A DNA stretch of 64,000 nt from Bradyrhizobium erythrophlei (lineage in GTDB: Bacteria > Pseudomonadota > Alphaproteobacteria > Rhizobiales > Xanthobacteraceae): contig NZ_LT670818.1 in the NCBI RefSeq assembly GCF_900129505.1, positions 5,861,001 through 5,925,000 of the forward strand, written 5' to 3'. The translations under genes were made by a program, and so were the position numbers. Within the stretch, counting starts at the first letter, position 1, and the number at the start of each line of letters is the position of its first letter. Of this stretch, positions 10,909-64,000 are shown piece by piece. Under the pieces are notes generated by a model that was given only the letters and a program-made list of their open reading frames with translations, had not been told where the DNA came from and did not search any database.

Positions 10909-12834
10909 ATGACCAGCGATGTTGTAGTTCCCGCCCCGGAAACGGCGGCGGCCAATGCGCGTGGCGATACCCATTCGACCGCCGGCTTCAAGGCGCTGAT
11001 GATGGGAAGCATCGGCGTCGTCTATGGCGACATTGGCACCAGCCCCCTTTATGCGCTGCGCGAGGCTGTGATCGCGGCCAGCGGCCCGGGCGGCGTCGCC
11101 AGTCCGCAGGCTGTGCTCGGGGTCGTCTCCCTGATCCTGTGGGCGCTGATCATCGTGGTGACGCTCAAATATGTGGTGATCCTGCTGCGCGCGGATAACC
11201 ACGGCGAGGGTGGAACGCTGGCGCTGATGGCGCTGGCGCAGCGCGCGGTTACCTACGGCGGCAGCGCCATCGTGCTGCTCGGCATCATCAGTGGCGCGCT
11301 GTTCTACGGCGACGCCGTGATCACCCCGGCGCTGTCGGTGCTTTCGGCGATCGAAGGTATCAAGCTCGTCACCGATTCGTTCGAACCCTATGTGGTGCCC
11401 CTGACGGTGCTTATTCTGTTTGTGCTGTTTGCGGTTCAATCGCGCGGCACGGCCCGCGTCGCGGCGTTCTTCGGGCCGGTGATGTGCGTGTGGTTCGCCG
11501 TCATCGCGATCGCGGCGATCACCCCGATCATGCGCCATGCCGAAATTCTGTATGCGCTCAATCCGCTGTATGCCGTTTCGTTCATGCTCCATCACGGCAT
11601 CATCGGCTTCGTCACGCTCGGCGCCGTGTTCCTCGCCGTCACCGGCGCCGAGGCGCTCTATGCCGACCTCGGCCATTTCGGCAAGCGGCCGATCCAGACC
11701 GCCTGGCTCTTTATCGTGCTGCCGTCGCTGGCCCTGAACTATCTGGGGCAGGGCGCGCTGGTCATCGGCGACCCCAAGGCGGTCGAGAACCCGTTCTTCC
11801 TGATGTTTCCCGACTGGGCCCTGATTCCGATGGTTGCGCTCGCCACCCTGGCGACTGTGATCGCGAGCCAGGCCGTGATCACCGGCGCCTATTCGCTGAC
11901 GCGTCAGGCCATTCAGCTCGGCCTGTTGCCGAGATTTGAAATTCGCCATACGTCAGAAGCCCATTCCGGCCAGATCTTCATCCCGCGCATCAACATGCTG
12001 CTGCTGATCGCCGTGGTTATGCTGGTGTTGATGTTCCGCTCCTCTAGCGCGCTGGCGTCGGCCTATGGTATTTCCGTGACCGGGACCATGGTCGTCACGG
12101 GCATGATGGGTTTTGTCGTCATCTGGCGGGTCTGGAGATGGTCGCCGTTCGCGGCCGCGGCGCTGATCGCGCCGTTCCTGTTTCTTGATCTCACCTTCCT
12201 GGCGGCGAACCTGTTGAAGGTGCTGGAGGGCGGCTGGGTGCCGCTGGCGCTGGGCGCCGCGGTGATGCTGCTGATGTATACTTGGCGGCGCGGCAGCCGG
12301 CTGCTGTTCGAGAAGTCCCGCAAGCTGGAGTTTCCGCTGGCCGATCTGGTGGCGATGCTGGAAAAGCGCCCGCCGCAGCGGGTGTCCGGCACGGCCGTGT
12401 TCCTGACCAGCGACCCCGTCAGCGCGCCGACGGCGCTGATGCACAGCCTGAAGCACTACAAGGTGCTGCATGAGAAGAACGTCATTCTCACCATCGAGAC
12501 CGCGCCGACGCCGCGGATCGACCCGGCCGAGCGGGTGAGGCTGGAGGAGATCAGCAAGACCTTCTCCAAGGTCACGCTGCGGTTCGGATTCATGGAGTCG
12601 CCCAACGTGCCCAAGGCGCTGGCGATCGCGCGAAAGCTGGGCTGGCAATTCGACATCATGTCGACATCGTTCTTCCTGTCGCGGCGCGCGCTCAAGCCGG
12701 CCGCGCATTCCGGCATGCCGCGCTGGCAGGACCATCTCTTCATCGCGCTCAGCCGCACCGCCAACGACGCCACCGACTATTTCCAGATTCCGAGCGGACG
12801 GGTGGTCGAGGTGGGAACCCAGGTCACGGTGTGA
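10909..12834 (+). CDS. kup: Kup-type low-affinity potassium transporter (copy 2)
   Basis: This 641-residue paralogue of the preceding gene has the motif [19 protein letters not shown], about 12 membrane segments and the same C-terminal cytosolic domain. The pair clearly arose by tandem duplication. ATG 10909 gives [11 protein letters not shown]; a GTG at 10882 would add nine residues. Bradyrhizobium and relatives often carry tandem kup genes, and the two may differ in affinity or pH range. The sequence alone does not show which is dominant. Confidence 0.92.
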
Positions 12835-12960
12835 TCCCGGGCCTCATCAAATTGCCTCCCGGAGCTTGATTTTCGCCGCCTGAGAGGCGAGGTTGGCTGT
12901 GAAGGCGAGGCCTCGGAAATCGTTGCTGAATTCGCTCTAACCGTCGCTGGGAGGAATTGC

Positions 12961-13287
12961 GTGGGTCAACAGGTCACCGATTTGACGCCGGAGGAAGTCT
13001 CCAGGGGCATGGCCGAGGGACGCTATCTCCTGGTCGACGTCCGCGAGCCGAACGAGGTTGCCGCCGAGGCCTATCCCGGCGCCGTCGTCGTTCCCCTGTC
13101 CAGCTTCGATCCCAAGGCGATCCCCGATCCCGGCGCCAAGCAGGTGGTGTTTGCCTGCCGCTCGGGGAAGCGGTCGGTCACCGCCTCGCTCGCGGCCCAG
13201 GCCGCGGGCCTTGCCTATGACAAGCATCTTGCGGGCGGAATGCTGGCCTGGAAGGCTGCGGGATTGCCGACCAAGACCGGCGGCTGA
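12961..13287 (+). CDS. Rhodanese-like domain protein
   Basis: This 108-residue single-domain rhodanese has LVDVREPNE at the N-terminus and the active-site loop FACRSGKRS with catalytic Cys66, followed by AGGMLAWKAAGLP. Such proteins move sulfane sulfur between small thiols or proteins. The start is GTG 12961, supported by a strong gggagga 6 bp upstream. The aminotransferase gene begins eight bases after its stop, so the two are co-transcribed. Confidence 0.88.
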   Translation: MGQQVTDLTPEEVSRGMAEGRYLLVDVREPNEVAAEAYPGAVVVPLSSFDPKAIPDPGAKQVVFACRSGKRSVTASLAAQAAGLAYDKHLAGGMLAWKAAGLPTKTGG

Positions 13288-13295
13288 CGGCCGCC

Positions 13296-14459
13296 ATGAC
13301 GTCCATGAACAAGGTGTTTGCCGAGCTTCCGGTCACGATTTTCGAGGCCATGTCGCAGCTTGCGCGCGACAACAATGCCATCAATCTCGGTCAGGGTTTT
13401 CCCGACGATCCCGGCCCTGAGGACATTCGCCGCGCGGCGGCGGATGCGGTGATGGACGGCTACAACCAGTATCCCTCGATGATGGGCCTTCCGGAGCTGC
13501 GGCAGGCGATCGCGGCCCATTACGGGCGCTGGCACGGACTTGAGCTAGATCCCATGAGCGAGGTGATGGTGACCTCGGGCGGCACCGAAGCGCTGACCAG
13601 CGCCATCCTGGCGGTGGTCGAGCCCGGCGACGAAGTCATCGTGTTCCAGCCGGTCTATGATTCCTATCTGCCGATCATCCGCCAGGCCGGCGGCATTCCG
13701 CGCCTGCTGCGCCTCGAACCGCCGCATTGGCGGCTCTCCGAGGAGATGCTGCGAGGCGCCTTCAACCACAAGACCAAGGCCGTGCTGTTCAACAATCCGC
13801 TCAATCCGGCGGCCGTGGTCTATCCGCGCGAGGACCTCGAATTGCTGGCGCGGTTCTGCCAGGAGTTCGACACGGTCGCGATCTGCGACGAGGTCTGGGA
13901 GCATGTCGTGTTTGACGGCCGTGAGCATATTCCGCTGATCACCATTCCGGGCATGCGCGAGCGCACCATCAAGGTCGGCTCCGCCGGCAAGATATTCTCG
14001 CTGACGGGCTGGAAGATCGGCTTTGTCTGCGCGGCGCCGCCGCTGCTGCGGGTCGCCGCCAAGGTGCACCAGTTTCTCACCTTCACTACCGCGCCCAATC
14101 TTCAGGTCGCGGTCGCCTACGGACTCGGCAAGACTGCGGAGTATTTTTACCAGATGCGCAACGATCTGGCGAAGAGCCGCGATCGTCTCACAGCCGGCCT
14201 GGAGAGCATCGGCTTCCCGGTGCTTCGTTCGCAGGGCACCTATTTCCTCACCGTCGATTTGTCGCCGCTCGGCCTCAACGAGACCGACGAGGCGTTCTGC
14301 AGGCGCATCGTGACCGACTACAAGGTGGCGGCGATTCCGGTGTCGGCGTTTTACGAACGGGATGCCGTGACCTCGGTGGTGCGGTTCTGCTTCGCCAAAA
14401 ACGATAAAACCCTCGACACCGCGCTGGAGCGTCTGCACGACGCGGTGCATCGCCGATAA
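13296..14459 (+). CDS. Class I/II PLP-dependent aminotransferase
   Basis: This 387-residue fold-type I aminotransferase has INLGQGFPD near the N-terminus, VTSGGTEAL for phosphate contacts, NNPLNPAA for the substrate and cofactor ring, and the PLP lysine K232 in VGSAGKIFSLTGWKIG. It resembles methionine / kynurenine / glutamine transaminases (YbdL type). ATG 13296 is taken; ATG 13305 is possible. It sits between a rhodanese and a polyamine-type binding protein. A sulfur amino acid substrate would fit the rhodanese, but that is inference. Confidence 0.88.
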   Translation: MTSMNKVFAELPVTIFEAMSQLARDNNAINLGQGFPDDPGPEDIRRAAADAVMDGYNQYPSMMGLPELRQAIAAHYGRWHGLELDPMSEVMVTSGGTEALTSAILAVVEPGDEVIVFQPVYDSYLPIIRQAGGIPRLLRLEPPHWRLSEEMLRGAFNHKTKAVLFNNPLNPAAVVYPREDLELLARFCQEFDTVAICDEVWEHVVFDGREHIPLITIPGMRERTIKVGSAGKIFSLTGWKIGFVCAAPPLLRVAAKVHQFLTFTTAPNLQVAVAYGLGKTAEYFYQMRNDLAKSRDRLTAGLESIGFPVLRSQGTYFLTVDLSPLGLNETDEAFCRRIVTDYKVAAIPVSAFYERDAVTSVVRFCFAKNDKTLDTALERLHDAVHRR

Positions 14460-47950: not shown

Positions 47951-50353
47951 ATGGGCTTGCAGGCAATTGAGACGACAGCCAAGAACCGAAAACCGGTTTT
48001 CCTGGTCAACCAAGATCCTGGTGACGCGACGACCACTGCCCATTGGACAGCGCACCAAGGCGTTTTGTTTCAAACCGAGGGCGCGTCGATTGTTTCCGCA
48101 ATCCGTTCGCTATTGCGACCCAAACCGATCGAGGACATGCGCGGAGCCATTGCACGTGCATCTGTCATTGCAGAGGTGTGTTTTCTGTGGCTTTTCATCG
48201 GAGCCACGTTGGACAAGGGGCTATGCGGTGAAAGCAAGACCCGCGTCCAGGCTTTCGTTGCACCAACCGAAATGGGACCTAAGCTCGCGCAGCCCAACGT
48301 CATGCGGGGCGAAGCCTTGCTGGTCTCGCAGGTTGTTGAAACAACGGTTATCGAGCAAAAGCAGATTCCCGAACGCGGCCGTGAAAAAGTCGACATTCTC
48401 GCAGGCCGGCTGACTCCCATTCGACAGTTAGATGCAGCACAGGGCAAAGCCGCGCAATCCGCCCCTGCGCGGGAGCAAAATCAGGCGCTTGAACACGAAC
48501 AGGAGCCGGACGGGGCTGAAGCCCGTGCACGTGCGACCGCGTCGCTCAGAGGAGAGCTCGATGCGGTGCGGTCAGCGGCTGAGGCGGCGAGGATCAAGCA
48601 AAGGCAGGCGCTTGATCAAGAGCGAGACAGGGCAGACGCCCTTGCGCGTGAACTTACCTCCCTCTGGGCGGAACTCGATGCGGCGCGGATCGTAGGTTCT
48701 GAGGCCGTGCAAGTCCCCGAGGCGGAGGTCCAGCAAAGGCAGGCGCTTGATCAAGAGCGAGGCAGGGCAAACGCCCTTGCGCGTGAACTTATCTCCCTCC
48801 GGGCAGAACTCGATGCGGCGCGGATCGCAGGTTCGGAGGCCGTGCAAGCCCGCGAGGCGGAAATCAAGCAAAAGCAGGAGCTCAAACAGGAGCGGGGCAG
48901 GGCGGACACCCTTGCGCATGAACTTACCTCCCTCCGGGCAGAACTCGATGCGGCGCGGATCGCAGGTTCGGAGGCCGTGCAAGCCCGTGAGGCGGAGATC
49001 AAGCAAAAGCAGGAGCTCGAACAGGAGCGGGGCAGGGCGGATACCCTTGCGCATGAACTTACCTCCCTCCGGGCGGAGCTCGACGCCGCGCGGAATGTAG
49101 GCCCGGAAGTCGCGCAAGCCGCCGCGGCAGAGGTCGAGGAAAAGCAGGCGCTCAAACAGGAACGAGACAGGGCAGAGGCCCTTGCGCGTGAACTTACCTC
49201 CCTTCGGGCAGAACTCGATGCGGCGCGGATCGCAGGTTCGGAGGCCGTGCAAGCCCGCGAGGCGGAGATTAAGCAAAAGCAGGAACTCGAACAGGAGCGG
49301 GGCAGAGCAGACACCCTCGCGCGTGAGCTTACCTCCCTCCGGGCGGAACTCGACGCCGCGCGGAACGGAGGCCCGGAAATCGCGCAAGCCGCCGCGGCGG
49401 TCGAGCAAAAGCAAGCGCTCGAACAAGAGCGAGACAGGGGCGAGGTCCTTGCGCGCGAACTAACTTCCCTCCGCGCAGAACTCGATACGACGCGTGCCGC
49501 GGGTCTGGAGGCCGCGCGAACCGCTGAGGCGGCGAAAATCGAACAAGACCTGGCACTTCGGAAGGAAGGCGAAAAGACCGAGACGCTTGGGCGCGAGCTT
49601 GCCTCGGCGCGGAAAGAGGCCGAGAAGCGTTCCTCACTTCTCGCCGCCGCGCACGCCGAGGTGTTACAGGCGACGGAGACAAATACAGCCATCGCAGCGG
49701 AGCAGAAACTGGCTCTCGCGAGCGAGCACGATCGCGCCGACGCCCGCGCGCGCGAGCTTATCGCCGTCAGGAACGAACTCGAAGCCGCTAACCGGCAGAT
49801 CGCTAACTTGAATGCTCCTGGTGCCGTGCGCTCACGCGAGCCGGCCGTTGATAGCTCGCAGGAGCGGATGGCCGAGTCCTCTTCGAGGACGATCGAGGGA
49901 AAGGAGCGCTCACCGGAACAGATTCGTGGCGAAGCCGTCGCCTCGACCTCGGGACGGTCGTCCGCTTCGGAATTGCCGCGTCCGCAGCCGCAGTCGACCG
50001 CGCGCGAAGCCGCGTCGGATTTGGATCCGAAAGTCGCTGTGAGGACAGAGCGATCTACATCGGCGAGCGCCGCTTCCCGCTCGCTCGCAGACGAACAGAG
50101 GCTGCTTGCTCGGGCAAACGCATTGCTTCTGCAAGCTGATATTAGCGGCGCTCGCCCATTGCTTGAACACGCTGTTGAGCGTGGCAGCGCGCGAGCTGCC
50201 TTTATGCTGGCCGAGACTTACGACGCGCGCGTGCTGCAATCTTGGCGCGCACGCGGAATCTCCGGTGATCTCACGAAGGCGCGTGAACTATATGAACGGG
50301 CGCAGGCAGGCGGCATTGAGGATGCGAAGGAGCGGATCGAAACTTTGAAATAG
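47951..50353 (+). CDS. Membrane-anchored coiled-coil repeat protein with Sel1-like end
   Basis: This 800-residue protein has a probable membrane helix at about 68-88 (ASVIAEVCFLWLFIGATL). Then come about 450 residues of charged coiled coil, including seven tandem 45-residue units (about residues 217-530) built on ALARELTSLRAELDAARIAG. A polar linker follows, and a C-terminal ~90 residues (ANALLLQADISGARPLLEHA, AAFMLAETYDARVL, AGGIEDAKERIETL) resemble a Sel1/TPR pair. The start is uncertain: ATG 47951 or ATG 48137 just before the membrane helix. It heads an operon with TAXI-type and VasI-like genes. The function is unknown. Confidence 0.8.
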   Translation: MGLQAIETTAKNRKPVFLVNQDPGDATTTAHWTAHQGVLFQTEGASIVSAIRSLLRPKPIEDMRGAIARASVIAEVCFLWLFIGATLDKGLCGESKTRVQAFVAPTEMGPKLAQPNVMRGEALLVSQVVETTVIEQKQIPERGREKVDILAGRLTPIRQLDAAQGKAAQSAPAREQNQALEHEQEPDGAEARARATASLRGELDAVRSAAEAARIKQRQALDQERDRADALARELTSLWAELDAARIVGSEAVQVPEAEVQQRQALDQERGRANALARELISLRAELDAARIAGSEAVQAREAEIKQKQELKQERGRADTLAHELTSLRAELDAARIAGSEAVQAREAEIKQKQELEQERGRADTLAHELTSLRAELDAARNVGPEVAQAAAAEVEEKQALKQERDRAEALARELTSLRAELDAARIAGSEAVQAREAEIKQKQELEQERGRADTLARELTSLRAELDAARNGGPEIAQAAAAVEQKQALEQERDRGEVLARELTSLRAELDTTRAAGLEAARTAEAAKIEQDLALRKEGEKTETLGRELASARKEAEKRSSLLAAAHAEVLQATETNTAIAAEQKLALASEHDRADARARELIAVRNELEAANRQIANLNAPGAVRSREPAVDSSQERMAESSSRTIEGKERSPEQIRGEAVASTSGRSSASELPRPQPQSTAREAASDLDPKVAVRTERSTSASAASRSLADEQRLLARANALLLQADISGARPLLEHAVERGSARAAFMLAETYDARVLQSWRARGISGDLTKARELYERAQAGGIEDAKERIETLK
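48599..49543 (+). repeat. Seven tandem 135-bp coding repeats
   Basis: Unit starts at 48599, 48734, 48869, 49004, 49139, 49274 and 49406 are 135 bp apart (132 for the sixth). Units 2, 3 and 5 end in the variant GSEAVQAREAEIK, and units 4 and 6 in GPEVAQAAAAEVE-like variants, so the array grew by mixed duplications. High DNA identity implies recent expansion or gene conversion. Confidence 0.9.
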
Positions 50354-53487: not shown

Positions 53488-54471
53488 CTATCCAGCGCGG
53501 TCGCCTACGATGGCGAGTTTGTCCGGCCGGGGCTGTCTGCGCAGTGCGAGCCGCAGAGCCAGCCATATCCCGACGCTGAGCGCCGCGCCCGCCGTAAGCC
53601 CAAGAATCAAAATGATACGGGGGCCGGAAGGGAACAAGGTCTTTTCGGCCGCAACAAATGACTGCCCTGTGACGAATCTGACAGTATCATCGTCAGGTGG
53701 CCCGTTACGCAAGGCGGTCAAGCGATTTTGCAGAGTGTCGAGCCGCGTGTGCGCGAGAACGTAGCTCGGGTGACGTACACCGTATACCGAGGAAAGCTCA
53801 GTTAATTCTCCTTCAGCGACGGCCTGGGTATCAGCCAACTGTTGCAACATCTGGCCGCGGAGGTATTCCAAAGCAACCGCGTTGGCAAGCCTGGCGGCCC
53901 GTTCCGGATCTCCTGCTGTAGCCGCGACCGAGATCAAATAGGAGCGCGTCTCGCTAGTCACGGTGATCTTCCGCATCAGCTCGTTCACGGCAAGGTCGCG
54001 CTGCGAGGGTTCCACCGCCGCTAGTCCGAGCCCTGTTCGCATGATCGAGAACACGCGCCACACAATCGACTCACGCGCAAATTCAGGATCCTTATCGAGA
54101 CCGAGCCGAGCAACCACGGCGCTGGCCGTTGCACGCGAGCGAATGCCACGTATGGCACCGTCCACGAGCGCAACAGGGTCGATCGAGGCGATCGGTTGGA
54201 TTTTCGTCCCGGTGGTCCGCTCTTCACGGGTGAAATTGAGATGGATGGTGGCTGCACTCGTATAGCGTGGCCCGATCAGAACGAGAAAAATTGACGCGAA
54301 CAAAAGAGCCGCGAGAAGGATCCCCACAATAAGTAGCTTTTTATGCCAGAGAATTCCTAGCGTGTCGCGTGCGACCTCCTCGTAATAGGCTCGCAGAAGG
54401 GTGGCCTCATTCTCCTTTATCTTTAACTGCGCTGTCATTCTCGACTTTCCGGACTCCAGGGTTGTGGCCAT
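53488..54471 (-). CDS. Wzz/chain-length determinant family protein
   Basis: This 327-residue protein has a cytosolic start, membrane helix one (KLLIVGILLAALLFASIFLVLIG, about 45-67), a periplasmic region with helical, coiled-coil-like parts (EGELTELSSVYGVRHPSYVL), and a second helix near the C-terminus (IILILGLTAGAALSVGIWLAL). This is the Wzz / polysaccharide co-polymerase layout that sets chain length in Wzy-dependent assembly. It lacks a C-terminal tyrosine kinase domain. The start may be ATG 54471 or 54438. Confidence 0.83.
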   Translation of the reverse strand: MATTLESGKSRMTAQLKIKENEATLLRAYYEEVARDTLGILWHKKLLIVGILLAALLFASIFLVLIGPRYTSAATIHLNFTREERTTGTKIQPIASIDPVALVDGAIRGIRSRATASAVVARLGLDKDPEFARESIVWRVFSIMRTGLGLAAVEPSQRDLAVNELMRKITVTSETRSYLISVAATAGDPERAARLANAVALEYLRGQMLQQLADTQAVAEGELTELSSVYGVRHPSYVLAHTRLDTLQNRLTALRNGPPDDDTVRFVTGQSFVAAEKTLFPSGPRIILILGLTAGAALSVGIWLALRLALRRQPRPDKLAIVGDRAG

Positions 54472-54664
54472 GCGGCTTCCGCTACGAGGCCTGCGATCAA
54501 CGCAGGAGCTGCCCCAAACTCCCAGAGTGAACGCCGGATCAGGCACGATGAAAAGGATTCCAGTCGGGGTAATCCATAAGACCTATGCCGGCTGGCCCTC
54601 GGGCCGTTTCGCCCCGGTGCGCCTGGGGCACCGCGCGCGTCGATTGCATGAAGTCGACAGATCG

Positions 54665-57628
54665 CTAACGCACGAAAATCTTGAAGACAGCGGGGTCGAA
54701 TAGGCCGCGGAACAGATTTCTGGCCCGGCTCTCGTCCGCGGCTTGCAGAAGCTCCAGAAACAGAGTCGGGCCGCCGGGCCGCAGGGCTTTACCCTCTGCA
54801 CAGTGTTCGCATGACCCACCGTCCGGATGCACAAGCGAGTGTGCGATCTCGAGCAGGCCCCGCTGGTAAGGATGTCGAACGATCTGGCAGCCGAGGAGCC
54901 GGGCCTCACGGACACAATCGATATTGGCTGGGGCAAGGCTATGTGTGGCTGCGCGAAACATCGGCAGATCCCCTTCCGAGTCGCCGGCCGCGATCGTCTC
55001 GGCGTCGGGCCTCAAGACCCAATCGCGCAGGACCGACAAGCCTGTACCCTTGTCGACATCCTTGGCCACGATCGTCGTATCGATTGTGGTGTGATGGAAG
55101 GACAGCCGATCCAGCCCCAAGGATTTCATCAAATGATGCATGACGAGCGTCGGGAGCGGCGCCGGAGCGCCGCCCCCGATGCTGAACGAGCGCGCCGACT
55201 TCAAGAGAGAGGAGAGAAGGCCGCGCGGCTTGTCGTGGTAGGTGAAAGCCCGAACGGAATATTGATGGCGGTCATCGAGAAATACCCCGGGGAGCAGCCG
55301 CAAATGACTTCTCAGCTCGTCCAACTGGACCATAGCCTCGGGGTTGATGAGAATTCGCTCGCGCTGACCTACAGCGTCCCACAGATAGCTGCCGTGCTCG
55401 GCGACGCCTCCGGCCAAATGATAGGCGTGGCAGTAATCCTTCACTTCAGCGGCCGACCGGGCCGTGTTCAAGGCGACCGAGAATCCATGGGCGTTCAACA
55501 GAGACAGGGCCTCGATGCCGGCCGCCGAGGTGCATGGAAAGCCGAAGAGCCGACGGTCGAGCAGACCGTCGAGATCGAGCGCGACAAGCGGCGAACGCCA
55601 ATCCAGCGCTTGCGGCGGCCGACAAAAGCTGCCGCAATAGCGCGCGGTATGGACCGTGAGAAAATTCCAGGCGCTCATGAGTTGGTGATGGAATTCCTGC
55701 TGCCTGTCGGCGACAAGCGGCTTGCCGAAGAGGTGCTCTTGGGCCGTGTTCATTGCCCAAAAGCCTGCGAGCAATTTGTGCATGAAGAGCCGTTGCTCTA
55801 CGCCTGCGTCTTCCGACTGCTCGACATAGCGCCGGATCAGCCTGCTCTCCTCATCGGGTGAGAGTGCCAGGGTCAGGATGGTCTCCGCCAGGTCGTAGGC
55901 AGGATCGACCACGTTCAGCTCGGACTTGCCCATGCCGTGATGCTCGTAGTCGGTCTTGAGCAATCCCGGTGACCCGGTGATCCATTCGTCTCGCCCCATC
56001 TTGCCGTCAATGAGTGTGGGAAACGGACAAGGCTGCTCGCACAATCGCCGCTCGAGGCGTGGCTGCATCAGCGTGTCCGTGACAATCCGACCGTAGGCTC
56101 TGCTCAGCACCTTCTGTAGCAACCGAAAGCCGTTTTCGTCCCGTCGCAGACCCTTGCGCGATGCGGGGCCTGTTCCCAATCCGAGATGCCGGACTCTCGC
56201 AGCCACATAAGAGGCGGACCTGTCGATCCGCGCCTCGCGCGCCGTATGGTCGTCCTCCGCGATATGCATGTCCTGAGGCAGCGGGGACTGCGGCAGCCAT
56301 TCCATGTAGAGAATCCCGTCGCGCAACCCGAGGATCGGCGGAACAAAGCCAGAAAGCCGCTGTCCGGCCAGAAACGCGTGATAGCCAAGCCACCCCCAAC
56401 CGACGCTTTTTGCCAGGACGTACCGCGTTTCCTCCTGTCCTTGAGGCGTCTTCAAGTGAACTTCGTAAATCCGCTTAAGCCGGGTGCCGCGATCGCCGCG
56501 CGACGAATCCTGCAAGCGAGCGTTGAACTCCCCAGCGCTTTTGCTGGCGACAAGCCCTATGTTGGCGAAATTCTGATGCTGAAAGTACTCAGCCAATCGG
56601 CCTTCCACCAATCTCTGGTCGAGCAGGCGATGCTTATGCCATTGCTCAGCTTCGAGCGACACGACAAGATTCTCGGATAGAGGGCCGAAGCAGTCCCTTC
56701 TCGCCGGGTGAGCAGGGACGAGGGCTCTGAGCTTATCGGGGGCAAATCCGGCTCGGCGAGCCATATCGAGACCCAAGACGACCGTACCACCGGTGTGTGG
56801 CGCGTCGTCCACAATTAGGGCCGTGAAGCCCCGCTGGGCGCAACGCCGGAGTTCCTGACGCTCCCACCGCCCCAGTCCTTTGTTCGGCTGAACCGTCAGT
56901 GAGGACACCGTCTGATAGCCTTCAGTCTTGAGAAATGCTCGCAGCAGCGGAGCGAAATAGGAACCCGAGGTGCGCAACCCCAGGACCAGGATCGCTTCCG
57001 AGCGATTCGGGAAGCGCTGCGCAAAGCGTTGTCCGAGCGCGACCACATCGAAATGCGTCAGGTCGAGCCGGCGAAATGGGGTTGGGACACCGACGTGCTC
57101 GGTTTGCAAATCGGGTGGCAAAGGCGAAAGCAGAAGCTTAGCCAACTTGCTGCCTGTCTCAGCGAAGGGGGTCGGGTCAGAGAGTTGCCCAGCAACGACG
57201 ATTGTAAGAAAATCGTCCAGCCCTGCCCGCCAGCGCTCCCGCCAGCGACGTGCCTGCGCCCGATGGCGCTGCGGCAGGATACCCGTCAGTCTTTCCGTCG
57301 CCCATCTGGCGCTATGCCCAAGGCGTGTTGCGGCCAACGGCCTGGGCATGCGCAGGGTTGGCCCGCGCAGGTATTCGTCAACAGCGTTCAACAGGGCGCA
57401 GGACAGCAGAAATACGTTGTTGACGACCTCTCCGGCCCGCCAGTCATGCGGCACGGCCTTAAGTTTGTCGATCTCGCCGCGAAGGTGGTCGGTCGCTTCA
57501 AGGACCGTCGGAAACGGGTTCAGACACCAATTGTAGGCTTGATAAAATTCGCACTCGGTCGGCAGCAGACATTGTTGCGGCGGCACGGCATCGCGGACCT
57601 GGCGCAGGCGCTTTGTACTTACCAGCAC
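54665..57628 (-). CDS. Three-part protein: phosphoribosyltransferase, kinase-like and HAD phosphatase domains
   Basis: This protein has 987 residues. About 200-300 is a type I phosphoribosyltransferase fold (AILVLGLRTSGSYFAPLLRA, then the PRPP loop LIVDDAPHTGGTVV at 271-284). About 385-600 resembles a kinase/phosphotransferase fold (YVLAKSVGWGWL with a candidate Lys at 407, YMEWL at 441-445, LIDGKMGRDEWI at 539-550 where the HGD loop would be, and a Asp-rich KTDYEHHG...VDPAYDLAET). About 680-905 is a HAD type IIB phosphatase: DLDGLLD (685-691), NTARS (721-725), KDVDKGTGL (856-864) and GDSEGDLPM (882-890). It begins 10 bp after the glycosyltransferase stop in a polysaccharide operon. The reaction is unknown; sequential transfer of phosphoribose and dephosphorylation is my guess. 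Confidence 0.8.
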   Translation of the reverse strand: MLVSTKRLRQVRDAVPPQQCLLPTECEFYQAYNWCLNPFPTVLEATDHLRGEIDKLKAVPHDWRAGEVVNNVFLLSCALLNAVDEYLRGPTLRMPRPLAATRLGHSARWATERLTGILPQRHRAQARRWRERWRAGLDDFLTIVVAGQLSDPTPFAETGSKLAKLLLSPLPPDLQTEHVGVPTPFRRLDLTHFDVVALGQRFAQRFPNRSEAILVLGLRTSGSYFAPLLRAFLKTEGYQTVSSLTVQPNKGLGRWERQELRRCAQRGFTALIVDDAPHTGGTVVLGLDMARRAGFAPDKLRALVPAHPARRDCFGPLSENLVVSLEAEQWHKHRLLDQRLVEGRLAEYFQHQNFANIGLVASKSAGEFNARLQDSSRGDRGTRLKRIYEVHLKTPQGQEETRYVLAKSVGWGWLGYHAFLAGQRLSGFVPPILGLRDGILYMEWLPQSPLPQDMHIAEDDHTAREARIDRSASYVAARVRHLGLGTGPASRKGLRRDENGFRLLQKVLSRAYGRIVTDTLMQPRLERRLCEQPCPFPTLIDGKMGRDEWITGSPGLLKTDYEHHGMGKSELNVVDPAYDLAETILTLALSPDEESRLIRRYVEQSEDAGVEQRLFMHKLLAGFWAMNTAQEHLFGKPLVADRQQEFHHQLMSAWNFLTVHTARYCGSFCRPPQALDWRSPLVALDLDGLLDRRLFGFPCTSAAGIEALSLLNAHGFSVALNTARSAAEVKDYCHAYHLAGGVAEHGSYLWDAVGQRERILINPEAMVQLDELRSHLRLLPGVFLDDRHQYSVRAFTYHDKPRGLLSSLLKSARSFSIGGGAPAPLPTLVMHHLMKSLGLDRLSFHHTTIDTTIVAKDVDKGTGLSVLRDWVLRPDAETIAAGDSEGDLPMFRAATHSLAPANIDCVREARLLGCQIVRHPYQRGLLEIAHSLVHPDGGSCEHCAEGKALRPGGPTLFLELLQAADESRARNLFRGLFDPAVFKIFVR

Positions 57629-57638
57629 GCGTAGCTCC

Positions 57639-58850
57639 TTAAGAGTGGGGGTGCGCGATCAATGGGGCAGCGCGCTCAACTTGGTCGCGACCCCTGAGAG
57701 CTTGCTCGTAGATCGCCATGAGAGCCTTGTGGTTGGCGTCCGCGGTGAAGTTCCGGTCAAATTCCAGACGTGCGGCTCGTCGCATCCGCGCCAGTTCCAG
57801 CGGATCCGCCAGAATTTGTCGCACCTTCGCAGCCAGGTCGACGGGGTCCCCCGGTCTAAAATGAAGCCCGGTGCGTCCGTCGTCGACGATTGCGGCCATT
57901 GCCCCCAATTTTGGAACGATTACCGGCGTCCCTTTGGCGAACGCCTCCACGATCGTCATGGAAAAATTTTCGTAGCAACGGGACGGCAATACCAGAAACA
58001 TCGCCTCTCCGACCAATCCATAGACCGCCTCGCGCGATACATGCCCTAACCATTGGATTGAGGAATCCTTCGTCGCGGCATCCTGTACCGCCGTCGCCAT
58101 TGGACCATCGCCGAGGAGCTTCAGCGACACATCGCCGCCGAGATAACGCCAAGCCTTGAGGAGCGTGTCTAGGCCTTTCTCCGCTGACAATCGACCGACG
58201 AATACCGCGTGGCCACCCTTTCCCTTACCCGCGCCAGGATCGGGATAGGCGAAGTTGGGTTTGATTGCGATCTTGTCTGCGGGCAGGCCCCCTTCGACGA
58301 GCTTGCGTCGACCGAATTCGGTGAGAGCGATATACATGTCGACTGCCGTCGACCAGGTTCCTAGAACTCGGTGCGTCGCGAGCATCGTAGCGACAGTGGT
58401 GCTGGCGGCACGGCTGCCTCGGTAGCACCTGTGCACAATGCCAGGCCAAGGAACCAGCTTTCCAAGACAGTTTTCGCAGACCTCGCCATCGCGAAGAAGA
58501 AGACCGTTAGCGCAGAGAAGGCGAAAGTTGTGCAAGGTCTGCACCACACGAACATTTTCAGCCCGTGCGGCGTAGTAGGCGGCTGGCGAGATTAGTGGAA
58601 ACGTGTTGTGGAAATGAGCAATTTGTACACGGTGCGCTCGGAGCAATTTTCTAAGCTCCCGGTACGCTGAGTGATTCCAGATCGTTCGTGATGCAAGCCG
58701 AATGCGATTCATCCCATTAATCGAGTCATTGTGTAGACAGTATTGCGTCACCTCATGCCCATGCGCTCTGAGCGTCGCAACCTCGGCCGCTACGCACTGA
58801 TCCTCGCCGCCTGGCTGCTGGTAGAAGTTGTGCGCCACCAGAATGTTCAT
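57639..58850 (-). CDS. GT4-type glycosyltransferase
   Basis: This 403-residue protein is a GT-B-fold transferase: N-terminal MNILVAHNFYQQPGGEDQCV, VQTLHNFRLLCANG with the Cys-rich VCENCLGKLVPW segment often seen in this subfamily, and C-terminal HAVFVGRLSAEKGLDTLL and NFSMTIVEAFAKGTPVI with the E(x7)E-type site. It adds a sugar to a growing lipid-linked unit. I chose ATG 58850 over ATG 58898. It is directly followed by the three-part protein gene. Confidence 0.88.
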   Translation of the reverse strand: MNILVAHNFYQQPGGEDQCVAAEVATLRAHGHEVTQYCLHNDSINGMNRIRLASRTIWNHSAYRELRKLLRAHRVQIAHFHNTFPLISPAAYYAARAENVRVVQTLHNFRLLCANGLLLRDGEVCENCLGKLVPWPGIVHRCYRGSRAASTTVATMLATHRVLGTWSTAVDMYIALTEFGRRKLVEGGLPADKIAIKPNFAYPDPGAGKGKGGHAVFVGRLSAEKGLDTLLKAWRYLGGDVSLKLLGDGPMATAVQDAATKDSSIQWLGHVSREAVYGLVGEAMFLVLPSRCYENFSMTIVEAFAKGTPVIVPKLGAMAAIVDDGRTGLHFRPGDPVDLAAKVRQILADPLELARMRRAARLEFDRNFTADANHKALMAIYEQALRGRDQVERAAPLIAHPHS

Positions 58851-58927
58851 CGCAATGAACTCCCAACTCGGACGAAGTCGACCTTGAGCAAGCCGCATCC
58901 GCTATACGATCGTTCTAAACCGCCTTT

Positions 58928-59764
58928 TCACAGTTCGCTTCGGATCGCGTTTACTTTTGGTGCCGTTTCTTCAACATGCGCGCTCGCCGACAATGCGCGT
59001 TGACAAATCTGTCCGTTGGTGAGTGAGGGTGCTTGGCTTGCGAATTCACTCATGTATCGCAAGGCTTCATCCAAACGATGCCACTGCTCGGTTTCCTGCA
59101 GCTCCCATGAATGTCCCCACAGATGGAACACGCCGCCGTATCTGAGGGATTCGTGCAGCAAGGATCGCGCCAACGCAGGCCAATCAGTCGAACGACCACG
59201 AGTCGTAAGCCGCAAGAGGTTCTTGAGGGCTAACCGCTTGACCGCGTTCTTCGCGAACGCAAGGGAGCCGTGCGGATAGGCTTGGATCGTGGTCGGCAGC
59301 AGCATGATCCCCGCATTCTTGCGTGGGAAGTCGAGCGACAATAATTCGACGTTGCGCACACCGAGATAACCTGCCTTTCGAGCTATGTCCAAGTGCCTAT
59401 TTGTGTATTTGCCTTTCGGCGGACAAAACATCAGGCATGGCAGGCCGGTATTGCTTTCGAGCCACGATTTAGATCCGGCAATCTCTTGCCACGCCTTCTG
59501 CTCGGTGGCCTCGGTCAGGACAGCGTGATGCAGGGTATGTGCACCAATTTCGAAAGCGAGACTGAGCTCCCGGATCTGGGCTGCCGGCATCGTCTCATTC
59601 TCGGCGGTCATCGGGATGTAAAATGTGCCGCGCAAACCATGCTTCGAGAGCAGCTCGGCCACACGCAAATCCAGCGGATGGCCGTCGTCCCAACTGGTCG
59701 TGATGAAGGTCGCCGGTTTCACGATCGTCTTTCCATCTATTGCGCTCCGAGCAGAAATCGTCAC
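58928..59764 (-). CDS. Polysaccharide deacetylase family protein
   Basis: This 278-residue NodB-fold protein has the metal site D26-D27 in ITTSWDDGHP and GAHTLHH (His76 and His79/80), plus CPPKGKYTNRHL for the third motif. Family members remove acetyl groups from N-acetylated sugars. No signal peptide is evident, so it probably acts in the cytoplasm on nucleotide sugars or lipid-linked units. It starts 16 bp after the flippase-kinase stop, indicating one operon. Confidence 0.88.
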   Translation of the reverse strand: MTISARSAIDGKTIVKPATFITTSWDDGHPLDLRVAELLSKHGLRGTFYIPMTAENETMPAAQIRELSLAFEIGAHTLHHAVLTEATEQKAWQEIAGSKSWLESNTGLPCLMFCPPKGKYTNRHLDIARKAGYLGVRNVELLSLDFPRKNAGIMLLPTTIQAYPHGSLAFAKNAVKRLALKNLLRLTTRGRSTDWPALARSLLHESLRYGGVFHLWGHSWELQETEQWHRLDEALRYMSEFASQAPSLTNGQICQRALSASAHVEETAPKVNAIRSEL

Positions 59765-59780: not shown

Positions 59781-62120
59781 TCAATTGGTTCGATCGAGGT
59801 GAGACAATTGAGCTCTCAGCCTCAGAAGTATTGCATCTATACGACGGGCGGCGATCTTTTTGACTATCATGCGCCACAGCTCAAGCGATGACGACGAGCA
59901 CAGCGCCTTGAGGTGTACCCGAGCGCACGCCTCAATTTCGTCCAGCAACCGCTGTTTCTCTTCGAATGAACCGATCGTCTCGATGAATGCTCGTAGGATG
60001 CTCTCGGCGAACAATTTCTGGCGCAAGCGGGCTTTGGGATTACCGACAGTGCTCTTCACCCTCACTCCCGTGTCATACAGCATGTATGCCAGGTCGTGTG
60101 ATGCCGGATACCAGCGTCGAGGGACGTCATCGCCAAGAAGAAAGGAATTCGTCCGCGGGCCGAGGTCGACGAAGGAGAGGCTTCTGTTGGCGATATCGCA
60201 GAGGGTGTTGTCGAAGTTGAGGTCTCCGTGAAGTTGCCCGACTGACCAACACCTCTCCATCGCGGCGACGATTGCGCGTGGGGCGGTATCCAATACTTCC
60301 GTTGTCATATTGTCGGCGTCACACAGGAGTGAGGTGAGCGGTCTTCCCGGTACCATGGTCATCACCAGCGCGAGCGGTGACGCACAGACATACAGCGGCG
60401 CGGGGGTAGAAATCGTCCAGCCATTGATGGTGCGACCGTCCACCACTGCATGGAATCGAGAGAGCGCCTCAAGCTGCGTGCGCACCAGCTCGACATTTGG
60501 CGCTGCGGATGGTTTGTACAACTTGATCACCAAACTGCGGTATGCTTGCCAGACCGGCTGCTGGCTCTGCGATGTGACAGCATAAACAATCGCCTGGACA
60601 CCCTCATCAAGCTGTTGAACTACCCAGCCGCTGTCTATGGAGCTTTGGGTGAACTGCTGGACCACCCGGGTCGCCATCGCTGAATTGGAATTCGAGCCAA
60701 TCTGCGTGGGACTTGCATTTAGGTCAAAGTGCGGTACGAGCGCTAAGAACGCTACCCACCGACCCACCGACCCGGCCACGTTACCCGCCAAGAAACCGTA
60801 AGCGGCTCCCAACAGGCCCCACTCGATCATCAATAGCCAGACGAGAACCCCGGTGATAACGGCCCCAACTAAACCGGCCCAGACGATTGCACGAGCGCGC
60901 TCCATGCTTGCCAGCGCGACGGAAGCTGGATTACCTACGGCCGACGCGAGCAGCGCTACGGCGAGAACGGCGACGGTGCGACCCTGTCCCTCGTACTCCT
61001 TCCCGGGATAGAGCAAACGCATCACGTCGTCGCCGACGAACAGGGCCACTATGCAGAACAAGGTCATTGCCGCACCGAGTAAAAGCGCGTCATGAACCAT
61101 CTGACGCCGCAGCAGTGCGCCGCCCCCCTCCTTCAACGCCAAAACTGCTCTTGGCGTCATGATATTGCTAATCCCCGTGATCAGGGGGTTTGCAAACATC
61201 ACGACGCTCATGCACGCGGCGAAGACACCTGTCGCGATCGTGCCGACGACCAGGGCCAACAGCCAGTAAGTTATGTATCCCTGCACGGACACGGTGATCT
61301 GGCCGGCGAAAAGCCATCTGCCCAAGCCCCAACTTTGTCTCGCTGTTGTCAGCACCTGAGTCCAGCGGAACGCAAATTTGCCGCGGGAGAAGCACAGCCA
61401 TATGATCGACGTGGAGGCGCAGGCAAAGCCAAGCGCGGCACAGGCGGTAGCGCCGGACATCCGCCCGACCCAGCCTATCCAGCAGAGTCCGGCCAGCTGG
61501 ATCGTCGCTACCGCCGAATCCAGGATCAGAGCTTGGCCGGTGTGCAGGTGCGCCAAGGAGAACTTGCGACCGAATTCCCGCAAAAGTGCGAAAGGCAGCA
61601 CCCCCGCCAGCGTCCAGGTCATTGCGCGGAGCCGCGGATCTGCGCCAGTTGCGGAAAGAGCCAACGCGATCACGAGCAGGATGACAATGCCGAGCGCCGA
61701 CAATAGAGCGCTGTGTGTCAGCGAGCTGCCCGCATGTTCAGCTGGAGTTCCCCGAGCGCGGTGCTGTTGGATCGTATAGGGCAGTGAGATCAGCGATTCC
61801 TGGATGGAAAGCGACGATACCAGCAGAGAGATTCCGATCGAGTAAAGTCCGAGTTCGTTTGGAACAGTCCAGCGCGCGATCACTACCGTTGTCAGAAAAC
61901 TGGCAGCGCTGACTACCGCCTGATCTGCGAGCGCCAAGGCGTGCGTTCCCCAAGTTCCCCAGGCGGTGCGCAGTAGCGTGACCCACCGCCATCTCATCTC
62001 TTCTTGAGCTGTGCACGGGTCAGCAGTTATAGCGACACATCTCTGCCCGAACGGCGGCGCCGACGATTGGGCCGGTGCTCTTTCCGTGATCGGCAAGCTG
62101 CTTTTCAAATCGTAGTCCAA
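59781..62120 (-). CDS. Wzx-type flippase fused to a kinase-like domain
   Basis: This protein has 779 residues. About 60-470 has roughly 12 hydrophobic segments of the MOP/Wzx polysaccharide flippase type (ALALADQAVVSAASFLTTVV, ANPLITGISNIMTPRAVLAL). About 500-760 is cytosolic and kinase-like: LVIKLYKPS with Lys533, a catalytic loop GQLHGDLNFDNTLCD (HGDxxxxN, 631-638) and SFVDLGPR with a metal-binding Asp652. The domain resembles lipopolysaccharide/Kdo-type and aminoglycoside phosphotransferase kinases. Flippases rarely carry a kinase. It may phosphorylate the sugar, the lipid carrier or a regulator while the unit is flipped. The link to both domains is seen directly in one uninterrupted frame. 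Confidence 0.85.
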   Translation of the reverse strand: MDYDLKSSLPITERAPAQSSAPPFGQRCVAITADPCTAQEEMRWRWVTLLRTAWGTWGTHALALADQAVVSAASFLTTVVIARWTVPNELGLYSIGISLLVSSLSIQESLISLPYTIQQHRARGTPAEHAGSSLTHSALLSALGIVILLVIALALSATGADPRLRAMTWTLAGVLPFALLREFGRKFSLAHLHTGQALILDSAVATIQLAGLCWIGWVGRMSGATACAALGFACASTSIIWLCFSRGKFAFRWTQVLTTARQSWGLGRWLFAGQITVSVQGYITYWLLALVVGTIATGVFAACMSVVMFANPLITGISNIMTPRAVLALKEGGGALLRRQMVHDALLLGAAMTLFCIVALFVGDDVMRLLYPGKEYEGQGRTVAVLAVALLASAVGNPASVALASMERARAIVWAGLVGAVITGVLVWLLMIEWGLLGAAYGFLAGNVAGSVGRWVAFLALVPHFDLNASPTQIGSNSNSAMATRVVQQFTQSSIDSGWVVQQLDEGVQAIVYAVTSQSQQPVWQAYRSLVIKLYKPSAAPNVELVRTQLEALSRFHAVVDGRTINGWTISTPAPLYVCASPLALVMTMVPGRPLTSLLCDADNMTTEVLDTAPRAIVAAMERCWSVGQLHGDLNFDNTLCDIANRSLSFVDLGPRTNSFLLGDDVPRRWYPASHDLAYMLYDTGVRVKSTVGNPKARLRQKLFAESILRAFIETIGSFEEKQRLLDEIEACARVHLKALCSSSSLELWRMIVKKIAARRIDAILLRLRAQLSHLDRTN

Positions 62121-62300: not shown

Positions 62301-63131
62301 CTATTTGCGAGATGGTGCCCCGACGGGCGCTTGTTTGGAGCGCCGGATGCCGCGGCGCGCGAGATCACCGACAGCGAGAATAATGAAGCCGGGCACGCTG
62401 TAGGCGTAGCGGCGCCACAGGCGCCGCGGTTCCGAGCACAGCCGAAACAGCCACTCCAGCCCGTTTCGCTGTATCCAGCGTGGCGCCTGACGTTTCGTTC
62501 CTGCCAGGAAGTCGAACGCAGCCCCGACGCCGATCATGACCGGGGCCTCGATGCGTCCGAGATGCCGCGCCATCCAGAATTCCTGCTTGGGCGTGCTCAG
62601 CCCCACCCAAATGATGTCAGGTCGAGCCATATTGATGGCGTCAATGTCGGCCTGATCCTCGTCGGGCGTCAACTCGCGGAAGGGAGGGCAGAGCGTGCCC
62701 GCCACCTCGAGGTTGGGATGAGCATTCATCAGGACCTGCTTCAGCTTGTCGGCCACACCTTCTGCACCCCCGTAGTAGAATTGCCGGTAGCCACGCAGGC
62801 TCGAGACGGCCGTCATTTTCCGCATCAGATCGGGGCCATACACGCGGTCCACATTCCCCTTGCCGAGAAGGCGTAAGAGCCAAACCAAGGGCATGCCGTC
62901 AGGCGTTACCATGCCGGCTTCGTTGTGAATGCTGCGCAGGCGCTGGTCGCGCCGGCTCTCCATGACGCCGTGGACGTCGCGGATGCAGACGTAATTGCGG
63001 CTGCGCTCGCTGATCCAGCGCTCAATCGTTGCGATAGCGTCGTCCAGGTTGATGGGACTGACACCGACACCAAGAATGTCGACCCGGTCGTCGCGGATTG
63101 GGCCGGCGGACCTTAACTGGCGACTTTCCAT
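62301..63131 (-). CDS. WecG/TagA/CpsF family glycosyltransferase (GT26)
   Basis: This 276-residue protein reads [45 protein letters not shown] and [20 protein letters not shown], the canonical GT26 motifs. It likely adds the second sugar to undecaprenyl-linked units, as WecG and TagA do. Its ATG overlaps the stop of the epimerase gene by 19 bases, so the two are translationally coupled. Confidence 0.92.
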
Positions 63132-64000
63132 ACGATCTTCTTTGCTTCGTTGGGGCTTGAGAGCAGGCTATCGAAATAGCGGATGGTCCGGCTCAGGCCT
63201 TCCTTGAGCGGCACCGCAGGCAGCCAATGCAGAATCTGTTTGGCGCGGGTGATGTCGGGGCAACGCTGTCGCGGGTCGTCCTGTGGCAGCGGTCGGAACT
63301 CGAGCCTCGAGCGCGAGCCAACAAGGGAGATGATAAGCCCGGCCAGCTCCGAAATGGTTGTTTCGAAGGGATTGCCGAGATTGACCGGTCCGTCGACGTC
63401 GCCCTCGACATTCATCAGACGCGTGAGGGCGTCGACCAGATCGTCGACATAGCAGAACGATCTCGTCTGCGACCCCGAGCCATAGATGGTGATCGGCTGG
63501 TTGTTAAGTGCCTGGATGATGAAACTGGAAACGACGCGCCCGTCCTGCGGGTGCATGTTCGGCCCGTAGGTATTGAAGATGCGCGCGACCCTTATGGCGA
63601 GCCGGTGCTGGCGCTTGTAATCGTAGAACAGCGTCTCGGCGCAGCGTTTGCCTTCGTCGTAGCAGCCGCGCGGGCCCGCCAAATTAACGTGACCGCGGTA
63701 CTCCTCGGTCTGCGGATGGACATCGGGATCGCCGTATACCTCGCTGGTGGACGCTTGCAGAATGCGGGCGCGCAGGCGCTTGGCGAGTCCCAGCATGTTG
63801 ATCGCACCAATCACGCTCGTCTTCGTCGTCTGAACCGGATCATGCTGATAGTGGATCGGCGAGGCTGGGCAGGCCAGATTGTAGATCTCGTCGACCTCGA
63901 CATAGAGAGGAAAGGTTACGTCGTGGCGCATGACCTCGAAGGCGGGCTCGCCGAGCAGTGGTTCGATGTTGCGGCGCGTACCTGTGAAATAGTTGTCGAC
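63113..64000 (-). CDS. UDP-glucuronate decarboxylase (UDP-xylose synthase), 5' end outside window
   Basis: The visible part is 295 codons and runs off the right edge; the frame continues to base 64000 ([17 protein letters not shown]). It has [35 protein letters not shown] (YxxxK) and [20 protein letters not shown], the classic sequence of UDP-glucuronic acid decarboxylase, which makes UDP-xylose. This would supply xylose to the polysaccharide. The N-terminal Rossmann glycine motif lies beyond the window. Confidence 0.9.

What the first reader, a model, noticed from the sequence alone, without database searches (positions are those of the whole stretch)
54665..57628. PRTase-kinase-HAD three-domain protein in a polysaccharide operon
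A PRPP-binding loop (VDDAPHTGGT), a kinase-like middle region whose HGD loop is replaced by IDGKMGRDEW, and an intact HAD type IIB phosphatase sit in one 987-residue chain. PRTase plus HAD phosphatase is the logic of adding phosphoribose and then removing the phosphate, as in arabinan precursor synthesis and in the predicted nucleoside-like pathway of ter operons. In a surface polysaccharide operon it may make a pentose- or ribose-based decoration.
Basis: partly seen in the sequence, partly recalled or inferred. Interest (0 to 1): 0.8.

Follow-up and report, generated by a model that had tools for sequence, protein, structure and literature searches.

The report
Ribosyltransferase-kinase-phosphatase fusion protein family
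A soil bacterium's slime-sugar gene cluster carries a large protein that joins a probable ribose-phosphate-transferring domain, an unusual kinase-like domain and a phosphate-removing domain; it belongs to a widespread, unnamed family that probably adds ribose to a surface sugar or its precursor, but no activity has been measured.

Summary
The gene is window 57628-54665, minus strand, 987 aa, with a type I phosphoribosyltransferase (PRTase) domain with intact PRPP loop, a choline-kinase/APH-fold domain whose HGD loop reads IDGKM...EW, and an intact HAD-IIB phosphatase. The odd kinase loop is not decay: K407, D541, W549, K558, H564, D575 and D579 are invariant in 44 aligned rows, 43 distinct proteins.

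New here: distant two-domain PRTase-kinase proteins without HAD. In 10 of 13 loci read, including Sinorhizobium meliloti pSymB, inositol-3-phosphate synthase and a histidine phosphatase lie within about 5 kb; in two Azospirillum loci a HAD gene lies downstream instead.

In the window the gene sits in an exopolysaccharide locus. Best reading: PRPP-dependent ribosylation, then dephosphorylation, of a glycan, cyclitol or lipid-linked precursor. The logic is known (gPRT-PRP enzymes), but this is not that family. Outside alphaproteobacteria the commonest neighbours found are GNAT and proline-dehydrogenase-like genes, so a polysaccharide role is not shown there. No activity was tested.

The parts
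54665..57628 (-). PRTase-kinase-HAD protein, 987 aa (GTG start at 57628)
57074..57628 (-). N-terminal helical region, residues 1-185
   Evidence: model; aligned with the two-domain family by hhalign from residue 43 on
56579..57073 (-). type I phosphoribosyltransferase domain, residues 186-350
56783..56812 (-). PRPP-binding loop VDDAPHTGGT, residues 273-282
   Evidence: D274 in 44 of 44 rows, D or E at 275 in 44 of 44, T282 in 42 of 44
55625..56575 (-). choline-kinase/APH-fold domain, residues 352-668
55982..56011 (-). non-canonical kinase loop IDGKMGRDEW, residues 540-549 (D541, W549 invariant)
55934..55963 (-). second non-canonical kinase motif LLKTDYEHHG, residues 556-565 (K558, H564 invariant; D560 in 37 of 44 rows)
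54794..55615 (-). HAD-IIB phosphatase domain, residues 672-945
55565..55576 (-). HAD motif I DLDG, residues 685-688
   Evidence: D685 and D687 in 44 of 44 rows
54968..54985 (-). HAD motif IV GDSEGD, residues 882-887
   Evidence: D883 and D887 in 44 of 44 rows
57639..58898 (-). GT4 glycosyltransferase, 10 bases upstream of the target
   Evidence: Glyco_trans_1_4 1.1e-26
58928..59764 (-). polysaccharide deacetylase
   Evidence: Polysacc_deac_1 1.1e-16
59781..62120 (-). flippase-like protein with a fused C-terminal kinase domain (HGD....N present)
   Evidence: Pkinase, APH and Polysacc_synt all below their cut-offs; same cluster in 12 of 51 loci
62301..63131 (-). WecG/TagA/CpsF-family glycosyltransferase
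   Evidence: 2.9e-61
63113..64000 (-). UDP-glucuronate decarboxylase (UDP-xylose synthase)-like gene; runs about 255 bases past the window end
   Evidence: 56% over 278 residues to the annotated S. meliloti UDP-glucuronic acid decarboxylase; full ORF L058:14113-15255
53488..54546 (-). Wzz-like chain-length determinant
   Evidence: Wzz 3.5e-7

Best explanation
The protein is most likely a cytoplasmic two-step ribosylating enzyme. The PRTase domain takes ribose-5-phosphate from PRPP and puts it on a hydroxyl (or other nucleophile) of an acceptor in a surface-carbohydrate pathway: a growing repeat unit, a lipid-linked or free sugar, or in the distant relatives an inositol-based acceptor. The HAD-IIB domain then removes the 5-phosphate so that the product can go on to assembly. 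The kinase-fold domain travels with the PRTase in the homologues seen and keeps an unusual but invariant active-site signature. I think it binds ATP and/or the acceptor, either activating the acceptor by phosphorylation or acting as a non-phosphorylating acceptor or regulatory module. Shown by computation: domain identities, conserved motifs, purifying selection, PRTase-kinase linkage, and the carbohydrate context in alphaproteobacteria. Inferred: activity, acceptor, order of steps, and the role of the kinase.
For: PRTase profile hits and PRPP-motif D274 in 44 of 44 rows. HAD-IIB motifs invariant, with fold matches that include sugar-phosphate phosphatases: mannosyl-3-phosphoglycerate, sucrose- and trehalose-6-phosphate phosphatases. 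EPS genes around the gene, with a UDP-xylose-synthase-like gene. GT4 in 9 of the 33 same-strand genes immediately upstream, from 46 loci. Two-domain PRTase-kinase relatives, aligned over residues 43-629 (hhalign E 2.3e-12, prob 97.7), have inositol-3-phosphate synthase and a histidine phosphatase within about 5 kb in 10 of 13 loci. In the two Azospirillum loci lacking these a HAD gene lies downstream. So 12 of 13 two-domain loci have some phosphatase gene nearby; the thirteenth (L075) is a 3.7 kb contig. Precedent for PRPP transfer then dephosphorylation in polysaccharides: PMC11127046 (abstract and passages), PMC12096443, PMC10299916 (passages).
Against: No activity, acceptor or sugar analysis exists. 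Outside the alphaproteobacterial group GT4/GT2 families match only 3 of 85 and about 5 of 68 scanned neighbours, while PF13480 GNAT matches 9 and 10 (25 of 101 and 25 of 69 families were printed). A proline-dehydrogenase-like gene clusters in 11 of 51 loci. The histidine phosphatase gene is next to the inositol-3-phosphate synthase gene (overlapping it in L082) and may simply make free inositol. The Azospirillum HAD is not adjacent in A. ramasamyi: a PAS-domain gene on the other strand lies between, about 3.8 kb. The kinase has the metal-binding Asn in only 1 of 44 rows and loses the DFG-like Asp in 7 of 44, so phosphorylation is doubtful.
Confidence: 0.5

Rival explanations
1. The enzyme makes a diffusible small molecule (nucleoside-like, aminocyclitol-like or amino-acid-derived riboside), not a polysaccharide decoration. 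The EPS location in the window is then secondary.
For: Distant relatives sit near inositol-3-phosphate synthase, a Gfo/Idh/MocA and a Zn-dehydrogenase. Many three-domain loci have GNAT and proline-dehydrogenase-like neighbours. In the Bacteroidota locus L044 (gene clusters shared by L049 and L055) there are also a ComA-like enzyme and an ATP-grasp protein weakly matching ATPgrasp_Ter. APH-fold kinases commonly act on small alcohols or amines (established knowledge).
Against: In the window and other Bradyrhizobium loci the neighbours include Poly_export, Wzz, flippase-like, deacetylase and GT genes. The two-domain cassette of S. meliloti also holds four glycosyltransferases and a UDP-glucuronic acid decarboxylase.
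Confidence: 0.25
2. The PRTase domain makes a polyprenyl-phosphate-linked ribofuranose donor (as UbiA-type enzymes do), the HAD dephosphorylates it, and the nearby flippase exports it for a periplasmic transferase.
For: The same PRT-plus-phosphatase-plus-flippase logic is reported for Citrobacter youngae O1 (PMC11127046, abstract and passages). A flippase-like gene is third upstream in the window.
Against: The PRTase here resembles type I PRTases, not UbiA. No GT-C gene was named among the neighbours scanned (not an exhaustive search). The flippase-kinase cluster is in only 12 of 51 loci and could simply be the Wzx of the EPS.
Confidence: 0.1
3. PRTase and kinase are pseudoenzymes: a PRPP/nucleotide sensor (compare PyrR, PurR) that controls the HAD or the EPS machinery.
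For: Profile hits include PyrR and PurR. The kinase lacks the canonical Asn and sometimes the DFG-like Asp.
Against: The PRPP acidic pair and the HAD catalytic residues are invariant. The two-domain form has no HAD to control. No DNA- or RNA-binding domain was listed for the protein.
Confidence: 0.15

Closest known systems
gPRT-PRP dual-domain ribofuranosyltransferases (K. pneumoniae O4/O7; H. influenzae Bcs3 CriT-CrpP; C. jejuni Cj1432)
   Same: PRPP-using PRTase-like domain plus HAD phosphatase in one chain, in polysaccharide loci; predicted two-step ribosylation.
   Different: CrpP has a mostly helical cap inserted in the flap; here the HAD is IIB with the large cap between motifs II and III. 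CriT's acidic pair is split (D680 and E818); here D274 and D/E275 are neighbours. The passages I saw of the four papers mention no choline-kinase-fold domain in these enzymes.
Mycobacterial DPPR synthase Rv3806c + phosphatase Rv3807c; C. youngae ORF15 (PRP + UbiA)
   Same: PRPP transfer followed by 5-phosphate removal for cell-surface pentofuranose.
   Different: UbiA is an integral-membrane prenyltransferase; here the domain resembles a type I PRTase.
Two-domain PRTase-kinase family of rhizobia, Azospirillum and Roseomonas (unnamed; e.g. L082, L086-L089)
   Same: Homologous N-terminal region, PRTase and kinase, with a shared D...EW...K.D kinase signature.
   Different: No HAD; PRPP loop VDEGPGLSGSS; the beta3-type Lys is K in 25 and R in 5 of 30; usually near inositol-3-phosphate synthase and histidine phosphatase.
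ter-operon PRTases (PRTase_2, PF15609)
   Same: PRTase in a predicted multi-enzyme biosynthetic operon with HAD and ATP-grasp partners (recalled).
   Different: No PF15609 match to this protein; none in its genome.
APH / choline kinase family
   Same: Fold; invariant K407 and D541.
   Different: No HGD...N; Asn missing in 43 of 44 rows; extra invariant W549, K558, H564.

Membership tests
Type I phosphoribosyltransferases | PRPP loop with acidic pair and T/S-G-x-T/S | tested here: met
   D274 44/44, D or E at 275 44/44, T/S at 279 42/44, G280 37/44, T282 42/44 rows; two-domain relatives D207, E208, S213, G214, S216 30/30
Type I phosphoribosyltransferases | Profile similarity to solved PRTases | tested here: met
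   107 PDB sequences at E<=1; 59 of 60 printed are PRPP-related by name, one is a hypothetical protein; best 2.4e-4, none at 1e-4
Type I phosphoribosyltransferases | Fold match of the PRT domain folded alone | not tested
gPRT-PRP ribofuranosyltransferases | PRTase-like and HAD phosphatase domains in one chain | tested here: met
gPRT-PRP ribofuranosyltransferases | HAD with helical cap inserted in the flap (CrpP-type) | tested here: not met
   NCBIfam HAD-SF-IIB match (below its cut-off); alpha/beta cap about residues 745-840 between T722 and K860; best fold neighbours HAD-IIB; CrpP description from PMC10299916
gPRT-PRP ribofuranosyltransferases | Acidic pair split over two loops (CriT D680/E818) | tested here: not met
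   vicinal D274-D/E275 against a PMC10299916 passage
gPRT-PRP ribofuranosyltransferases | Sequence similarity to solved gPRTs | tested here: inconclusive
   not named among the 60 of 107 printed hits
gPRT-PRP ribofuranosyltransferases | Transfers Ribf-5-P from PRPP to a glycan | not testable with these tools
   needs an assay
HAD-IIB phosphatases | Motifs I-IV | tested here: met
   D685, D687, K860, D883, D887 44/44; T or S at 722 44/44
HAD-IIB phosphatases | HAD-IIB fold | tested here: met
APH / choline kinases | Fold | tested here: met
APH / choline kinases | HGDxxxxN catalytic loop | tested here: not met
   Asp kept 44/44; HG replaced; Asn at +5 in 1/44 rows
APH / choline kinases | Metal-binding Asp of the DFG-like motif | tested here: inconclusive
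   D560 in 37/44, G in 7/44
ter PRTase_2 (PF15609) | Pfam profile match | tested here: not met
   no hit at E<=1 for the protein; no match in G000; 7 of 96 genomes had sub-cut-off matches, 0 over the cut-off

The most novel reading that the evidence does not exclude
PRTase + choline-kinase-fold tandem proteins form a third, so far undescribed class of PRPP-dependent ribosylating enzymes for surface glycans and inositol-containing oligosaccharides. An obligatory atypical kinase domain activates or holds the acceptor, and the phosphatase step is supplied interchangeably by a fused HAD-IIB domain, a histidine phosphatase or a free HAD.
Probability: 0.33. Interest if true: 0.82.

Novelty: new variant of a known kind. 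Interest (0 to 1): 0.63.

Why it matters
Ribose in bacterial polysaccharides was traced to PRPP-dependent enzymes only recently. If this family does the same chemistry with a different PRTase, a different phosphatase and a kinase domain, it opens a second soluble route. It would also give a marker gene for pentose-bearing exopolysaccharides and a handle on an unexplained inositol-phosphate/oligosaccharide cassette on S. meliloti pSymB. The invariant atypical kinase motif is a question of its own that mutants can test directly.

Tried and rejected
Tried: a single-sequence scan of genome contigs found nothing; the alignment scan worked. Search for shorter, PRT-only relatives: 40 hits; I looked only at their two ends, which suggest truncated or frame-broken fragments, so no single-domain relative was established. 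Plasmid and phage collections gave no match to the three-domain protein at E 1e-5. Kinase homology by sequence alone was too weak (choline kinase 0.023), so the domain was folded alone. A PDB profile search with the two-domain family gave nothing at E <= 1. The Azospirillum HAD matched solved HADs named inorganic pyrophosphatase, putative beta-phosphoglucomutase and a carbohydrate phosphatase (best 4.6e-5), so no link to solved PRP domains. Paper searches for BtrL/BtrP (0 papers), ter PRTase terms, inositol-3-phosphate synthase with S. meliloti, TIGR04290/TIGR04295 (0 papers), PRTase with GNAT/ProDH/FemAB (0 papers), PRTase/kinase/HAD/EPS in Bradyrhizobium (10 of 34 listed) and gPRT with kinase domain showed no description of this architecture in their listings; that covers only these searches of an open-licence library. 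In one search every printed row was a HAD-type chain; no PRTase or kinase row appeared, which says nothing about those domains.

Considered and rejected: pseudogene or chance fusion; ter family member; gPRT-PRP member (HAD class and acidic pair differ).
Full report
OBSERVATION. The reported frame is real, on the minus strand, 987 aa, single match in a 9.18 Mb one-contig genome. Pfam lists only HAD-type families; NCBIfam adds one weak kinase model over residues 560-626. AlphaFold2 on 116 sequences (115 of the 120 listed homologues plus the query; P0031, P0056, P0058, P0101 and P0119 left out) gave pLDDT 85.8, pTM 0.89.

MOTIFS. In 44 aligned rows (43 distinct proteins: the query and L058 are the same gene, and L019 and L063 are 97% identical; truncated or partial loci L030, L033, L051-L054, L056, L057 and the two-domain L064 left out), PRT G217, R219, G222, D274, kinase K407, Y416, D541, W549, K558, H564, D575, D579 and HAD D685, D687, K860, D883, D887 are in 44 of 44 rows. 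D560 is kept in 37 of 44 and the kinase Asn at +5 in 1 of 44. Mean pairwise identity over 946 pairs is 0.32 (N-terminal), 0.41 (PRT), 0.44 (kinase), 0.47 (HAD), so the kinase is no less constrained than the PRT. Against L060, dN and dS are 0.047 and 0.285 (PRT), 0.110 and 0.515 (kinase), 0.039 and 0.195 (HAD), 0.174 and 0.397 (N-terminal).

DISTRIBUTION. 874 of 7993 scored candidates at E <= 1e-3. The alignment scan of species genomes gave 45 loci labelled Bradyrhizobium, other alphaproteobacteria, Burkholderiales, Nevskia, Acidobacteria, Bacteroidota, Gemmatimonadetes, Nitrospirae, Rokuibacteriota, Chloroflexi and 'Terrabacteria group' (many are MAGs, so some labels may be wrong). In the own genus 10 of 265 genomes have it, own included; one of these gave only partial matches. 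In an order-wide sample 2 of 199 genomes hit, own and the partial two-domain hit G045. The gene is sporadic.

NEIGHBOURHOOD. In the own genome one strand reads UXS-like gene, WecG-type GT, flippase-like protein with fused kinase, deacetylase, GT4, target, Wzz; Poly_export, a sub-threshold Wzy_C match and a beta-helix gene lie divergent just outside the window. The flippase call is also sub-threshold, and no initiating sugar transferase was identified, so I call it an exopolysaccharide locus, not a complete one. A UXS-like gene at 55-60% identity to the S. meliloti one lies in 8 three-domain loci, all of the own genus (the window counts as L058). Clusters among 51 loci: flippase-kinase 12, Pro_dh-like 11, GNAT 14, GT4 9, Poly_export 7 (named from representatives; ORFs were called by a greedy longest-frame rule, and in L023, L024, L037 and L051 an antisense frame hid the target). 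Of 33 same-strand genes immediately upstream (46 loci), 9 match GT4 families, 6 Pro_dh, 4 GNAT; of 30 downstream 5 match GNAT, 3 GH9, 3 Wzz. Outside the alphaproteobacterial group 153 neighbours were scanned: 152 of the 211 ORFs found within 6 kb in 29 loci plus one Pro_dh-like ORF; nearly half of the 59 left out belong to the Bacteroidota loci L044, L049 and L055. PF13480 GNAT leads (9 of 85, 10 of 68); GT4 families match 3 of 85 and GT2 plus GT4 about 5 of 68, counting the 25 families printed of 101 and 69. The 125 neighbours of the alphaproteobacterial group were not scanned in the same way, so the contrast is not a like-for-like test. L044 carries WecG, deacetylase, ComA-like, ATP-grasp, Pro_dh-like and GNAT genes; L049 and L055 share the deacetylase, ComA-like, ATP-grasp, Pro_dh-like and GNAT clusters. 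This speaks against a uniform polysaccharide role.

TWO-DOMAIN RELATIVES. The partial hit in G045 led to a PRTase-kinase protein without HAD. 1794 of 7995 scored candidates match it; the 120 listed are 500-610 aa with no Pfam HAD, and those with a name are nearly all 'hypothetical protein'; the unlisted rest may include three-domain proteins. Profile-profile comparison aligns the two families over residues 43-629, E 2.3e-12, prob 97.7. In 30 aligned members D449, K466, D468 and D487 are in 30, E456 in 29 and W457 in 28; the Lys matching K407 is K in 25 and R in 5. Of the 13 loci read, 10 have both inositol-3-phosphate synthase and histidine phosphatase within about 5 kb (L064, L078-L082, L086-L089); GT relatives lie in 8 of 13, the TIGR04290 methyltransferase in 8, and a UDP-glucuronate decarboxylase at 60% or more in 6. 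L075 is a 3.7 kb contig with the synthase but no phosphatase. The Azospirillum loci L083 and L085 have neither synthase nor that phosphatase near the gene, but a HAD gene downstream: the next ORF in L083 (its HAD part starts some 200 bases after the stop), beyond an opposite-strand PAS gene in L085. Several of these loci are from sister species and are not independent.

MECHANISM. A PRPP-binding PRTase with a phosphatase, fused or nearby, suggests transfer of ribose-5-phosphate and removal of its phosphate. The histidine phosphatase may instead serve inositol phosphate, so the 'swapped phosphatase' argument is suggestive only. The kinase role is open: loss of Asn and, in some members, of the DFG-like Asp argues for an atypical or non-phosphorylating role, while invariance of K407, D541, K558 and H564 argues for function.

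COMPARISON. PRPP-dependent ribosylation by gPRT plus HAD PRP is established (PMC11127046 abstract and passages; PMC12096443, PMC10299916 and PMC11231755 passages). The founding 2022 paper was not held and was seen only as cited. The present protein works like these at most; it fails two of their structural features. I saw no description of the PRTase-kinase-HAD architecture in the listings of the searches named.

CHECK. On rechecking I corrected the dN/dS wording, the PDB hit description, the EPS-locus claim ('complete' withdrawn), the Bacteroidota loci and the cassette counts; the odds did not need to change.

Noticed in passing
window 59781-62120 (-): A flippase-like protein carries a fused C-terminal kinase domain with a normal HGD....N loop (seen in 6 members); the cluster is in 12 of 51 loci.
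   Followed up: partly
L082:6728-24680 (S. meliloti pSymB): Cassette of inositol-3-phosphate synthase, histidine phosphatase, PRTase-kinase, dehydrogenases, GTs, UDP-GlcA decarboxylase and TIGR04290 methyltransferase, in part conserved in other rhizobia, Azospirillum and Roseomonas; product unknown to me.
   Followed up: partly
L044 (clusters shared by L049, L055): ComA-like enzyme, ATP-grasp weakly matching ATPgrasp_Ter, Pro_dh-like and GNAT genes surround the three-domain gene.
   Followed up: partly
L036:4842-8009 and 11016-13886: Two copies of the three-domain gene in one locus, separated by an 807-aa ORF and an ORF of the Pro_dh-like cluster.
   Followed up: no
L011, L012, L056: The Bradyrhizobium copy in G318 / NAS80.1 appears only as partial matches in short frames: a degraded or fragmentary copy; only noted.
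   Followed up: no
L046:13843-14883 and L050:14920-15777: Tryptophan-pathway genes (trpD-like and trpC-like) lie downstream of the three-domain gene.
   Followed up: no
window 47951-50353 (+): 800-aa ORF with many repeated segments such as RELTSLRAELDAAR, apparently a coiled-coil repeat protein.
   Followed up: no
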